DNA of 64,000 nucleotides from Aphrocallistes beatrix (Eukaryota; Porifera; Hexactinellida; Sceptrulophora; Aphrocallistidae): contig OY725492.1 in NCBI GenBank assembly GCA_963281255.1, positions 4,901,571-4,965,570 of the forward strand. Direction: 5' to 3'. Made by a program: the position numbers and the translations under genes. Below the pieces are notes generated by a model. The model saw only the letters and a list, made by a program, of their open reading frames with translations. It did not search any database and was not told the DNA's origin. Positions 25,404 through 64,000 of this stretch are shown in pieces. Each line of letters starts with the position of its first letter. The first letter of the stretch is position 1.

Positions 25404-26065
25404 CTATATAGTCAAGTGTGCATAACTATTGAGTTCTATTTTTCGCTGGGGAGGAGGTTGAAAACTATCCTGGTCCATCTTAGCACATTCTCTCCTGCAA
25501 TCACGCACCAGGAATTCACCTAGCCTAAAATTAGACAAGATTTAAAAACTAAATTTAGATCCTGCCCGCCCTATTTCAAAGTTTCCCGAGAAGTATACAA
25601 TGGAGTCTCTGAATAACGGACACATTGGAGACAAGACTTTTGTCCGTTGTAGAGGGGTTGTCTCGCTTTTCGGAATGTCCGTTTTGGAGGCTCCACTGCA
25701 TTACGCAGTTCAAGTATATAATATTTACATTATGGTGAATTCTTTACACGGTCCTTGCTCAGTGAAGAACTTGCAGAGGTAAATATATTCGCTTACTCTG
25801 TTGAAAAAAATGTAAAGTCTATCTTTCTGAAAATTGTTGTTCTATTTTGAGTTTACCTTTCCTCCATGTATTTGCATATGTTTTCTAAAAATAGAAAATA
25901 AATATATTTTATTTGCATGGGTTACTAATGTAAATAATTGTTTAACATGGTGATATATCACACCATTAACTTACCGCATTCACTCCCATTAGTCAGTTCG
26001 TTACCAGTCAGCTGGTGAACAGCTGATTCAAACACAATTAAGCACAGGAAGTAAGCTGCCTGCAT
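25404..26065 (-). CDS. Secreted six-Cys peptide, family member 1
   Basis: Four exons on the minus strand: 25975-26065, 25857-25884, 25729-25797 and 25404-25524, joined in phases 1, 2, 2 to give 102 residues. Exon 1 encodes the signal peptide (MQAAYFLCLIVF...) and the first Cys; exon 2 adds the second so that the pair is C-x3-C across the splice. Exon 3 has C-x8-C, exon 4 C-x3-C (DCRREC) followed by an unusually long Pro/Gln tail. It is the most divergent and most isolated copy, separated from the others by the seven-transmembrane gene. The intron between exons 3 and 4 carries a small MITE (25598-25698). Role unknown; secretion is inferred from the signal peptide. Confidence 0.65.
25598..25698. 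mobile_element. Small MITE in intron 3 of peptide gene 1
   Basis: Ends CAATGGAGTCTCTGAATAAC and GTTTTGGAGGCTCCACTG are inverted over about 100 bp, with an internal GGACAC / GTCCG pair. It matches the CAGTGGAG-type pogo-like ends. Confidence 0.6.
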
Positions 26066-27294
26066 TCTGACCGGTTATCTAAATAAACAAATGTTTGTGT
26101 TTACTTCTCTTAGTATTCTTCTAGGTGTCATTAATTAGCTTGCTGCAATAAACAAATTTCAATTTATTTAAATCTGAATTCTTGAATCTATTCAATGGAT
26201 TTTTGTATGAAAAATCTTTCCCCAATTCAGAAAATATGTATTTACCTCACTAATTTGATGCCTTAACTCTACTGCAAAAGTTGAATTCGAATGCTTGCTT
26301 ATCTGGATCTGAGGATTTATAGAAAATACGTTGAAATAAATTCTTTATGCTGAAATTCTGTGTTAATTATGTGGTCTCACATGTTTTTAAAAGCAGCCAT
26401 TTAATGAATGATCAAATTATGAGATTCAAATGTCTATTATAATATAATTACACAAATATTTGATAATCATGTGTTTACCTGAAACGTGTTTACATCATGA
26501 GATTGTATATTATTATTCCCTAAAAGGATGAGTCTGATGCATACTATCACATTTTTTGTGTTTATTCTTAAAAATTGTACTTTACAAGTTCAATTTGTGA
26601 CTATTTCGTATCTCCATCAGGCGTCCTATGGGCGTCTTCTATTATAATGCCCAGAACATTGTTATGCTAGATATGAGATCTGAGTATCTCGCTACACTGC
26701 CTGGTAAAAGTATTGGAACACCATTTGCTTTGTAGGAAAAATCGGATCTGTAGATTTTTTAATATCAATGTTCTTACCGTGTATGCCTTCTTTTCAGAGA
26801 TAATTGAATTCTATATCGGCTGATTGTTCACTTTCAAATTCTGGGTTGCAGGAATATTGGCACATGTTTAGTTTATTTGCATAAATGAACCAATACAACA
26901 AGAAGAATTTAATGATGACATTATGCTGACTGACAAAAGTTATACAAAAATCGACCCTTAACCCAAATTCTAGAATCTGTTATGGGACAAATCATTGAAA
27001 TAAAATGGAATAATTGCATATTTATTATGAAAGATGTAGTCTAGTGGATCATATGCAATAATCTTAAAATTGAAAGTAAATCAAACAATTTAAATTCATA
27101 TACAACATATGCACAGTTCCCCATTTGTAATCTACCAATGAAGAAATTGAAAGTATAATGAACTTTCAGATAAGCAACATGTGACACTCCTTCCAACCAA
27201 CACATTCTATACACGCTCCCACTTAAGTTAAAGTGTTGTACGAGAAATGATAAAAAATACTCGCTTTCAATACATCGTAGACTGTCTGAGTGTG
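26066..27294. other. Intergenic, upstream of peptide gene 1 and of the 7TM gene
   Basis: AT-rich. Minus-strand peptide gene 1 and the plus-strand 7TM gene diverge from here. A short segment at about 26620-26702, preceded by CATCAG and followed by GTAAAA, could be an exon of about 28 codons but resembles no family I know and does not continue ODF2. Confidence 0.4.
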
Positions 27295-27304
27295 TATATA
27301 AATA
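27295..27304 (+). promoter_or_regulatory. TATA box of the 7TM gene
   Basis: TATATAAATA lies 37 bp ahead of the ATG at 27341, leaving room for a very short 5' UTR. This fits an intronless gene with a compact promoter. Confidence 0.6.
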
Positions 27305-27340
27305 AGGATACTTTTAAAGTTAACAAAAGTACACAGCAAA

Positions 27341-28489
27341 ATGGTTCTAAGTATTCATGAGAGGATTCATAGGGTTACTCCTTTCGCACTAATTCCTTAC
27401 TTGCTTATTACTTTAATCACAATACCATACTTCATTCACCAAAAAATCATAATTTCACGTAGGATAAAAAACATTCCATCGTCAACTATCTTTGCCACCG
27501 ATCTCGGTAAAGTGAAGAAAAATTTGCAAATACAATCGCTAGCTCACAGTTTCATTCTGATCATCTCTAGTTGTGAAGCTATTATTTGTCTTGTTGCTTG
27601 TATCACTAACATTTATATCGAATTCGGATCAAACATTTCAATTTTTTACCAAATTACAGTTGGAAATACAGAAACAAACGAATCGTGTAGCCTCTATGGG
27701 TTGACAGTGTCTGGTATGTATACTACCATCACCAACAACCTAGCATACCTCCTACCCATCCTCTTGAATCTGTTTCTAATCGTATTAAGAAGAGCTTGCC
27801 TAAATGTGCAATACAAGAGATGGATAATAGGATATTCGGGGTACTTCTTATTTAGGTTCTGCTATCTCGTTCTTTCATGCTACCTCCCCATCGCTCGGTA
27901 TGTAATGAACATTATTGAAATGCCATTTGTAATGATTGACCTGTATATTTTCATGATTGCGAGTAAGAAGTTCTATCTCCTTCTGAAAGGAATGAGCGAA
28001 GAAGCTAGATGGCATTCCACACCAAAGGAATATAAACAAAAACGAAAATCTATGAAAACATTTGGGATTTTACGAAGGATCATATTGTTTGTATTCTTTA
28101 TCTTCATAACAATGGTTTTATTAAATTCCATAAACGAATTCGCACTCATTATAGTGAACAGTGACTGTTTGCTACGATACTTACTCCCAAACACTCCCAT
28201 CTTCTTCACTCTCCCGAAAAACTTAGTTTATATCTTGTACAAGATATCACATTCCTGTCGATTTCTTCGCATGATCGGTACTGGAATTGTTGGTGTGATT
28301 GTATCTCTATCTAATTTCGCAATCCTCACTTCAATTATTGTCAAACTAATGAGAAGAAGACAAAAGTACATCCATATCAACGAGTGGATATCCCGTCCTC
28401 TTATGGAGAAGTACAGAGCTGATGTAGGTAGACACAGAGAGAGGAGACCTCCATTCATACAAGCCTTCAGATCTCAGCTAATATACTAA
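27341..28489 (+). CDS. Seven-transmembrane protein, orphan GPCR-like, intronless
   Basis: 382 residues in one exon. Seven hydrophobic segments lie near residues 14-32, 68-92, 122-149, 162-182, 188-208, 245-272 and 311-336. Basic loops (KKNLQ after 59, KQKRKSMK near 232-239, RRRQKY near 338) mark likely cytosolic sides. NIS at 98 and NES at 113, between segments 2 and 3, could be glycosylated. There is no DRY, NPxxY or other class A signature, and no long N-terminal domain, so I only call it GPCR-like. A lineage-specific chemoreceptor is one option; another 7TM family cannot be excluded. Confidence 0.65.
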   Translation: MVLSIHERIHRVTPFALIPYLLITLITIPYFIHQKIIISRRIKNIPSSTIFATDLGKVKKNLQIQSLAHSFILIISSCEAIICLVACITNIYIEFGSNISIFYQITVGNTETNESCSLYGLTVSGMYTTITNNLAYLLPILLNLFLIVLRRACLNVQYKRWIIGYSGYFLFRFCYLVLSCYLPIARYVMNIIEMPFVMIDLYIFMIASKKFYLLLKGMSEEARWHSTPKEYKQKRKSMKTFGILRRIILFVFFIFITMVLLNSINEFALIIVNSDCLLRYLLPNTPIFFTLPKNLVYILYKISHSCRFLRMIGTGIVGVIVSLSNFAILTSIIVKLMRRRQKYIHINEWISRPLMEKYRADVGRHRERRPPFIQAFRSQLIY

Positions 28490-62721: not shown

Positions 62722-62836
62722 AGCCCCTCACAGACGGACTAGAAGTGTGCTTCCACATTCCTTGGAGGATGACACAATACTTGTCATCCAAGGAATTTGG
62801 ATGCACACTTCTAGCCCGTCTGTGAGGAGCTTTCTT
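62722..62836. repeat. Long hairpin, about 50-bp stem
   Basis: Arms AGCCCCTCACAGACGGACTA and TAGCCCGTCTGTGAGGAGCT extend to a stem of about 50 bp with a few mismatches and a small loop near 62777. Compact and isolated; could be a palindromic MITE or a microRNA-type precursor. Confidence 0.75.
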
Positions 62837-62961
62837 ACATCAATTAAAGTTTGTAGGATTAAAATTGTGGATGTAAATTTTGGCTGTGTCATCATGATGA
62901 CGTCAGCATAATTAATTAGCATAGTTTTGTAGAGTCATCCACACTGACACTTTATACAATA

Positions 62962-63740
62962 CAAGCGCGCTTCGCTTGCTTGCGCTGCGCGGCTTGCAGA
63001 CACTGCGTGTCCGCAGATTTCCCCAGTGGGCGCTTGCGGATATTAGAGAAACAATACATCGCTTTCTTGTTATTATACTAAGTACACTGGATTGTCATTT
63101 GTCTACGGTTACATTAATGAAATCAGAACTGTAGCAGAAATTTTGTTTTGTGATAAATATAATTTACTTCGTATTAAGTCTTAAGTCAACTATCCTGAAT
63201 GTAAGCTCAATTTGAATTCACAAAGTTCACATTGCTTAAGATTATTGTACTAAAATAATCAATTCCAGTCCATGTCGTTAAAAGTTATTTTATGATCGAA
63301 TTGATTGATCGTAGCATATAACACACTTTAATTATTGTTAACAATCAAATAATAGACTCAAAATAGCAGTATTCAATCATTTATATAAAATAGAATCATG
63401 TGAATGGCATTATAAAAGGCTGATAATTGATTGGTTCACATAAACCAATGAATTTCAATCAAAAATAGTTCTTTTGATTGTATGCATAAGTCACTACTAT
63501 TTTATTCCAATGTATTTGCATTATAAAATAATCGAATTTGATTGATCAGCACATTTTGTCACCTATCTCGGCGAGGTGTGAACATTTCGCTTAGATCTTC
63601 GAACCTAATCCTAGATTCATCATTTGACACCTACATGCCAATTTTGGTATCTCTACGACTTGCCAATTCTTCAATCAATTCGGACAAACAAAACAAAAAA
63701 CAAAAAAACAAAAAAAATCCTAGCATTTTAATATATAAGA
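62962..63740 (-). mobile_element. Helitron-like element d
   Basis: On the minus strand it begins TCTTATATATTAAAATGCTA at 63740 and ends in the GC-rich hairpin cluster 62962-63042. Ends agree with element a; the body is mostly different except for the first 150 bp, as expected for non-autonomous Helitrons that swap interiors. Confidence 0.6.
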
Positions 63741-63953
63741 TATGTTTATTCACTGTATGGAGGTGTTCAGTACTACCCAATTCCTCTCCCTCTACTCTGT
63801 AAGGAGCATTGTTTACTGAATACTTTAATGGCCTAAATACTCAATACAATTACTCTGATACAATTTACTCTGCCTAAATATAGAATATTGTTAATCGGGC
63901 CTAAATATAGAATAGAGCATTAGACTTGAATTCTGAGCGTCTGTCATTCTCCT

Positions 63954-64000
63954 TCAAGCGCCACATCTCTCATGGCAATGCTTTGTCAGGAAATTTTCAA
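63954..64000 (-). CDS. Secreted Cys-rich peptide, family member 9, exon 4 only (cut by window edge)
   Basis: The last 47 bp match exon 4 of members 7 and 8, with the stop at 63954-63956 and the HCHERC codons in place. The upstream flank (CTGTATGGAGGTGTTCAGTA, about 63753) also matches the 3' flanks of units 6, 7 and 8, so a further unit of the tandem array begins here. Confidence 0.75.
   Translation of the reverse strand, partial: ENFLTKHCHERCGA

What the first reader, a model, noticed from the sequence alone, without database searches (positions are those of the whole stretch)
25404..64000. Hidden multigene family of four-exon secreted cysteine-rich peptides
At least nine copies share a signal peptide of the form MKxxYxLCLIxxVAAVSQL and then three tiny exons. 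Each splice joins in phases 1, 2, 2, and every exon pattern is repeated independently in divergent copies, which is strong internal evidence that the models are right. Exons of 28-141 bp mean ORF-based or standard gene finders would miss them. I know of no described family with this exact architecture.
Basis: seen in the sequence. Interest (0 to 1): 0.95.

Follow-up and report, generated by a model that had tools for sequence, protein, structure and literature searches.

The report
Glass-sponge secreted cysteine-rich peptide cluster
A glass sponge carries a tandem cluster of about ten small split genes for secreted, disulfide-rich peptides of a design not found in the databases searched, probably fast-changing defence or recognition molecules that ordinary gene finders could overlook.

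Summary
On the minus strand lie seven complete four-exon genes, an eighth running off the window end, one copy with a disrupted exon 3 and one relic. All 8 complete models splice in phases 1-2-2; exon lengths differ only by multiples of 3; the only post-signal invariant columns are six cysteines. Spacing is near-palindromic, C-x3-C-x14-C-(8 to 31)-C-x14-C-x3-C, in 8 of 8 (13 for the first 14 once).

Mitochondrial COX1 identifies a hexactinellid, 96% to Aphrocallistes beatrix. Searches of the 100.5-Mb assembly place the family at one locus of about 40 kb. No relative was found in 5.8 billion proteins, PDB, Pfam or NCBIfam.

Signal-coding stretches are identical in the four close pairs while mature parts diverge, as in conotoxins and mussel CRP-I; gene conversion contributes, and positive selection is not proven. 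I infer secreted, disulfide-stapled helical hairpins with a variable loop, most likely for defence or recognition. They are acidic, which argues against ordinary membrane-lytic peptides. Expression, pairing and function are untested. New variant of a known kind.

The parts
60916..61847 (-). Copy c61862, complete: exons 61847-61763, 61700-61658, 61589-61515, 60964-60916; 83 aa
61926..61993 (-). Putative promoter and noncoding first exon of c61862: TATAAATA (61993-61986), donor GTGAGT (61931-61926)
   Evidence: sequence; conserved with c57660; no transcript
56843..57645 (-). Copy c57660, complete: exons 57645-57561, 57499-57457, 57237-57163, 56891-56843; 83 aa
57724..57792 (-). Putative promoter and noncoding first exon of c57660: TATAAATA (57792-57785), donor GTGAGT (57729-57724); acceptor AG at 57659-57658
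   Evidence: sequence; no transcript
53063..53975 (-). Copy c53990, complete: exons 53975-53879, 53810-53768, 53317-53243, 53111-53063; 87 aa
50282..51052 (-). Copy c51068, complete, divergent: exons 51052-50974, 50920-50878, 50810-50733, 50339-50282; 85 aa; lacks the CC, has an extra C-terminal Cys
45697..47514 (-). Copy c47530, disrupted: exon 1 47514-47430, exon 2 47368-47326, only about 25 bases of exon 3 at 46865-46841, exon-4-like 45745-45697
36411..38544 (-). Copy c38560, complete: exons 38544-38460, 38398-38356, 38291-38208, 36459-36411; GC-AG intron 1; 86 aa
32388..32749 (-). Relic copy: exon-1-like 32749-32692 without ATG and with stops, weak trace of exon 3 near 32463-32388
29239..30377 (-). 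Copy c30393, complete: exons 30377-30293, 30236-30194, 30128-29988, 29287-29239; GC-AG intron 1; His/Gln-rich C3-C4 loop of 31 residues; 105 aa
25404..26065 (-). Copy c26081, complete, most divergent: exons 26065-25975, 25884-25857, 25797-25729, 25524-25404; six Cys only, the first encoded at the end of exon 1; long C-terminal tail; 102 aa
63954..64000 (-). Exon 4 (all but its first two bases) of copy c64630, whose exons 1-3 lie beyond the window (G000 C6 up to 4966201); complete when the flank is read; 83 aa

Best explanation
This is a tandemly duplicated family of secreted peptides of a glass sponge, with no relative found elsewhere. Shown from sequence: each gene has one signal-peptide exon and three short exons, which in 7 of 8 copies each encode one cysteine pair of a six-cysteine core with near-palindromic spacing (C-x3-C-x14-C, variable loop, C-x14-C-x3-C), usually with a seventh cysteine. 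Inferred: after signal cleavage the peptide folds as two antiparallel helices stapled in a nested way (C1-C6, C2-C5, C3-C4), with the C3-C4 loop of 8-31 residues at the tip; the seventh cysteine may link dimers. Inferred: paralogues are kept alike at the signal exon by conversion or constraint while mature exons vary, giving a set of stable scaffolds with different surfaces, released to bind foreign targets (microbes, fouling organisms, consumers) as part of defence or recognition rather than as lytic cationic peptides.
For: Eight complete models with identical phases and in-frame exon length changes; the six post-signal invariant columns of the 7-sequence alignment are all Cys; TGT/TGC switches at 3 of the 6 Cys positions show protein-level conservation; spacing pattern 8 of 8, with 0 unspliced six-frame matches in the window; exon 3 recovered uniquely in 7 of 8. 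The signal-coding 22 codons have 0 differences in the four close pairs, while mature dN/dS estimates are 2.31, 1.30, 2.17 and 0.98. Exons 2+3 differ more than noncoding sequence in two of three tested close pairs (p 2.0e-4 and 1.8e-4). Clustered at one locus with a broken copy and a relic, as birth-and-death predicts.
Against: No transcript, peptide or activity evidence. The third tested pair, c64630/c57660, shows no exon excess (p 0.45); the fourth, c38560/c30393, was not tested and shows none by eye (exon 2 8/43, exon 3 17/84 against intron 1 9/56 and upstream 45/223). No single dN/dS excess is significant (p 0.13, 0.56, 0.23, 0.70). Gene-conversion mosaics (c64630 resembles c61862 in exon 1/intron 1 but c57660 in exon 3/intron 3) could mimic localized divergence. 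Mature peptides are acidic (pI 4.5-6.0, charge about -2 to -7), unlike typical antimicrobial peptides. Best helical moments are moderate and uneven (0.26-0.72). No structure prediction was made for the spliced peptides and no signal-peptide predictor was run. Single genome queries missed divergent copies, so the family count is a lower bound.
Confidence: 0.5

Rival explanations
1. Secreted signalling ligands (hormone- or cytokine-like) acting on the sponge's own receptors, diversified by duplication.
For: Small, presumably secreted, Cys-rich, acidic peptides. A gene of a large family with a predicted GPCR-like fold sits inside the array at 27302-28489.
Against: That receptor-like family has at least 109 matches across the genome, so one inside the array can be coincidence. 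Dibasic processing sites were not looked for. Rapid mature divergence is unusual for hormones (recalled).
Confidence: 0.2
2. Structural or silica-associated matrix peptides of the glass skeleton; His-rich loops of some copies would aid silica polycondensation.
For: c30393 has a His/Gln-rich repeat loop and c38560 a short His-rich loop; glass sponges secrete dedicated silica proteins (passages of PMC10772126).
Against: The other 6 of 8 complete copies have no such loop; all are acidic; no Pfam domain, CAP included. Glassin and hexaxilin sequences were not compared.
Confidence: 0.08
3. Membrane-active antimicrobial peptides in the strict sense.
For: Signal peptide, cysteine scaffold, tandem array; CX3C pairs as in plant alpha-hairpinins (motif from PMC11591084 passages).
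Against: All 8 mature parts are acidic; the alpha-hairpinin motifs match 0 of 8.
Confidence: 0.12
4. A decaying array: open frames survive by recent duplication and conversion but the genes are no longer expressed or selected.
For: One disrupted copy and one relic among ten; dN/dS near or above 1 in close pairs is also what loss of constraint gives.
Against: Eight complete frames with splice sites, six Cys and spacing kept across deep divergence; in-frame length changes only.
Confidence: 0.07

Closest known systems
Mytilus CRP-I peptides (passages of PMC10138031)
   Same: Noncoding exon 1 plus three coding exons, conserved signal, variable six-Cys mature part, multigene, pseudogenes present
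   Different: CRP-I has a knottin array C-C-CC-C-C wholly in the last exon; here the mature part is split over three exons with CX3C pairs at both ends
Conopeptide precursors (passages of PMC7900195)
   Same: Conserved signal with hypervariable mature peptide; 1-4 very short exons
   Different: Described as genome-widely distributed genes, here one array; no similar protein found in the large database; frameworks differ (recalled)
Plant alpha-hairpinins (passages of PMC11591084)
   Same: Two CX3C pairs at the ends of a presumed helix-loop-helix
   Different: 4C and 6C motifs match 0 of 8; here 37 or more residues, two of them Cys, lie between the pairs, and a CC opens the core in 6 of 8
Saposin-like proteins (topology and spacing recalled)
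   Same: Nested C1-C6, C2-C5, C3-C4 pairing is what I infer here
   Different: No Pfam match; Cys spacing much shorter, 0 of 8 by pattern
Stryphnines, knottins of the sponge Stryphnus fortis (passages of PMC13418204)
   Same: Ribosomal, sponge-encoded, signal-bearing Cys-rich peptides
   Different: Knottin type; a demosponge (recalled)

Membership tests
Plant alpha-hairpinins | C-x3-C-x(4-20)-C-x3-C (4C) or the 6C variant | tested here: not met
   0 of 8 for either pattern (motif definitions read in passages)
Knottin / ICK (incl. CRP-I) | Cys order C-C-CC-C-C | tested here: not met
   0 of 8 have C..C..CC; the CC, where present, comes first
Saposin-like (SapB) | Pfam SapB profile and long Cys spacing | tested here: not met
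   No SapB match for the 7 members scanned at E<=10, HMMER filters on; spacing pattern (recalled) 0 of 8
Saposin-like (SapB) | Saposin fold with nested disulfides | not testable with these tools
   Spliced peptides do not qualify for the folding tool; no model made
ShKT domain | Pfam ShK profile; C-x3-C-x2-C end | tested here: not met
   No ShK match for the 7 members scanned; the ending (recalled) occurs in 1 of 8
Conopeptide superfamilies | Signal-peptide similarity to a known superfamily | tested here: inconclusive
   Profile search of 5.8 billion proteins gave none at E<=1 among 1263 candidates, but it needs shared 5-residue words; no direct comparison made
Secreted Cys-rich peptide arrays (a kind, not a homology group) | Tandem array, signal exon constant, mature part variable with fixed Cys | tested here: met
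Secreted Cys-rich peptide arrays (a kind, not a homology group) | Expression and bioactivity | not testable with these tools
   No RNA or peptide data held

The most novel reading that the evidence does not exclude
The family uses a disulfide scaffold not described before: a near-palindromic twin arm (C-x3-C-x14-C) that staples a helical hairpin and presents one length-variable loop, forming a gene-converted repertoire of variable recognition molecules (immune or allorecognition) in an animal without adaptive immunity, perhaps read by the expanded GPCR-fold family of the same genome.
Probability: 0.12. Interest if true: 0.82.

Novelty: new variant of a known kind. Interest (0 to 1): 0.5.

Why it matters
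My library searches listed no secreted cysteine-rich peptide family from a glass sponge (listings only, open-licence papers only). If expressed, the array shows that a sponge maintains a diversifying secreted peptide repertoire, gives a new stable scaffold to test, and shows a class of gene (exons of 28-141 bp, some GC-AG introns, no homologue found here) that standard annotation could easily miss.

Tried and rejected
Organism: GC and neighbours left several phyla open. The mitochondrial COX1 (11 TGA; AGR as Ser and AAA as Lys fit best by eye) gave a hexactinellid. My earlier idea that the code pointed to a protostome was dropped.

Homology: profile versus 5.8 billion proteins, none at E<=1. 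The database holds at least one glass-sponge nuclear protein under a public name (an Oopsacas minuta hypothetical protein appeared), so absence is informative but not decisive. PDB none; Pfam and NCBIfam only weak single matches that I judge chance. Rfam and tRNA scans of the window were empty. A tblastn of COX1 against plasmids gave bacterial records and was uninformative.

First splice models of c47530, c38560 and c30393 with a GT donor, and of c53990 exon 4, were wrong and were replaced. Weak genome matches outside the array (C1:1606815, E 0.157; C10:2285611, E 0.057) were judged chance and not followed.

Dropped rows: dN/dS, spacing and motif tests use the 8 complete models; c47530 and the relic are left out. 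A1 holds 7 of these 8 (c64630 was modelled later). The Fisher tests of exon against noncoding divergence were run on three of the four close pairs. The alignment for the receptor model used 50 of the 81 listed proteins plus the query.
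Full report
WHAT WAS CLAIMED AND CHECKED. A blastn of the exons of one copy against the window found nine exon-1-like stretches, all on the minus strand. Iterated nhmmer profiles found nine for exon 1, six for exon 2, two for exon 3 and eight for exon 4; exon 2 of c51068 and c26081, exon 4 of c26081 and the divergent third exons were found by reading frame, phase and splice sites. The result is 7 complete genes in the window and an 8th (c64630) straddling its end. One further copy (c47530) has lost most of exon 3, so its frame does not continue. One is a relic without start codon.

WHY THE MODELS ARE CREDIBLE. All 8 complete models join in phases 1, 2, 2. Exon lengths vary (79-97, 28-43, 69-141 bases; last exon 49, 58 or 121) but only by multiples of three, while introns range from 53 to 1748 bases. 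In the 7-sequence alignment the invariant columns after the signal are exactly six cysteines. At 3 of these 6 positions the codon switches between TGT and TGC, so it is the amino acid that is kept. Given exons 1, 2 and 4, one and only one exon 3 satisfied frame, phase and cysteine spacing in 7 of 8 copies (two in c26081); dinucleotide shuffles gave any candidate in 7, 5, 6, 13, 19, 32, 12 and 2 of 300; the wrong strand, tried for five copies, gave 0, 2, 0, 0, 0. The rule was set after all copies had been modelled and the copies share ancestry, so these figures should not simply be multiplied. No unspliced frame in the window contains the cysteine pattern.

FINE ANATOMY. The 8 peptides share C-x3-C-x14-C-x(8-31)-C-x14-C-x3-C (13 for the first 14 in c26081). 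Seven of 8 have a seventh cysteine: six as CC at the start and one near the C-terminus. In 7 of 8, exon 2 encodes the first C-x3-C; in c26081 the first of these Cys is the last full codon of exon 1. Exon 3 encodes the third and fourth cysteine and exon 4 the last C-x3-C in 8 of 8. Intron 1 of c47530, c38560 and c30393 uses AG|GCAAGT, a GC-AG donor; the nearby GT would break the frame. In all 9 copies listed, the disrupted one included, an AG directly precedes the leader (A/G)TA(A/G)CC(A/G)(A/G)TC... before the ATG. In c61862, c57660 and c64630 a TATAAATA and a GTGAGT donor lie upstream, which suggests a noncoding first exon; in the other copies I saw no such conserved block. Trans-splicing is the alternative: a leader of about 37 bases was reported in A. 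vastus, in 4% of long reads (section 2.1 of PMC10282587 read).

ORGANISM AND GENOMIC EXTENT. The window is G000:C6:4901571-4965570 of a 100.5-Mb assembly in 28 contigs. COX1 on contig C28 is 96% identical to Aphrocallistes beatrix, 85% to A. vastus and 82% to Oopsacas minuta. Genome searches with exon 1 of c30393 (8 matches), exon 4 of c30393 (6), exon 1 of c26081 (2) and three whole proteins (12, 10 and 5) hit only this locus, apart from one weak match on C1 (E 0.157) and one on C10 (E 0.057). Each single query misses divergent members, so a remote paralogue elsewhere is not excluded.

EVOLUTION. Between c64630 and c61862 exon 1 and intron 1 are identical (0/85, 0/62), exon 2 differs at 5/43, exon 3 at 15/75, intron 3 at 24/282, the upstream 300 at 22/299 and the downstream 120 bases at 2/119. 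In the other subgroup c38560 and c30393 are identical from 80 bases upstream through exon 1 (0/165), yet differ by 8/43 in exon 2 and 17/84 in exon 3, but also by 9/56 in intron 1. Exons 2+3 exceed noncoding divergence in c64630/c61862 (p 2.0e-4) and c61862/c57660 (p 1.8e-4), but not in c64630/c57660 (p 0.45); c38560/c30393 was not tested. The 22 signal codons show no difference in the four close pairs; mature dN/dS estimates are 2.31, 1.30, 2.17 and 0.98, none significant alone (p 0.13, 0.56, 0.23, 0.70). c64630 is a mosaic: its exon 1/intron 1 match c61862 and its exon 3/intron 3 are closer to c57660 (5/75, 6/270), which points to gene conversion or recombination. The safe reading is a constant signal, a fixed cysteine frame and a fast-changing mature surface; positive selection is possible but not proven.

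HOW IT PROBABLY WORKS. The equal arm lengths suggest an antiparallel helical hairpin with pairs C1-C6, C2-C5, C3-C4 and a loop at the tip that varies from 8 to 31 residues, His/Gln-rich in c30393. This is inference; best helical moments of 0.26-0.72 are compatible, not proof. The folding tool takes contiguous translations only, so no model of the spliced peptides was made. The signal exon is a plain secretory signal by eye (no predictor was run). The mature parts are acidic, which makes target binding more likely than membrane lysis. Defence or recognition is the best guess from the array, the variability and the sessile filter-feeding host; signalling, skeletal matrix, strict antimicrobial action and decay are the rivals.

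COMPARISON WITH KNOWN FAMILIES. By behaviour it resembles mussel CRP-I genes (passages of PMC10138031) and conopeptides (passages of PMC7900195). By motif it fails alpha-hairpinin, knottin and saposin patterns (0 of 8 each) and has the ShK-like ending in 1 of 8. No Pfam, NCBIfam, PDB or large-database relative was found. Literature searches for glass-sponge cysteine-rich, antimicrobial or toxin peptides listed nothing of this kind (listings seen, with passages of PMC10772126). The library holds only open-licence papers.

Noticed in passing
[not shown]
   Followed up: partly
window 34553-36073, 40344-41864, 44196-45363: Three CYP4-like single-exon P450 copies interleaved with the peptide genes, the third broken into two frames.
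   Followed up: partly
window 47430, 38460, 30293: Three paralogues share a GC-AG donor AG|GCAAGT in intron 1.
   Followed up: yes
window 46841-47326: Disrupted copy c47530: unrelated sequence with a tandem repeat (46991-47041) replaces the 5' part of exon 3.
   Followed up: partly
window 12670-13676: Tandem array of a 22-base unit, about 46 copies at 96% match.
   Followed up: no
window 57277-57440: Long TTA microsatellite (about 55 units) inside intron 2 of c57660.
   Followed up: no
L009 (G000 contig C28): Mitochondrial COX1 has 11 TGA codons; AGR as Ser and AAA as Lys fit best by eye.
   Followed up: partly
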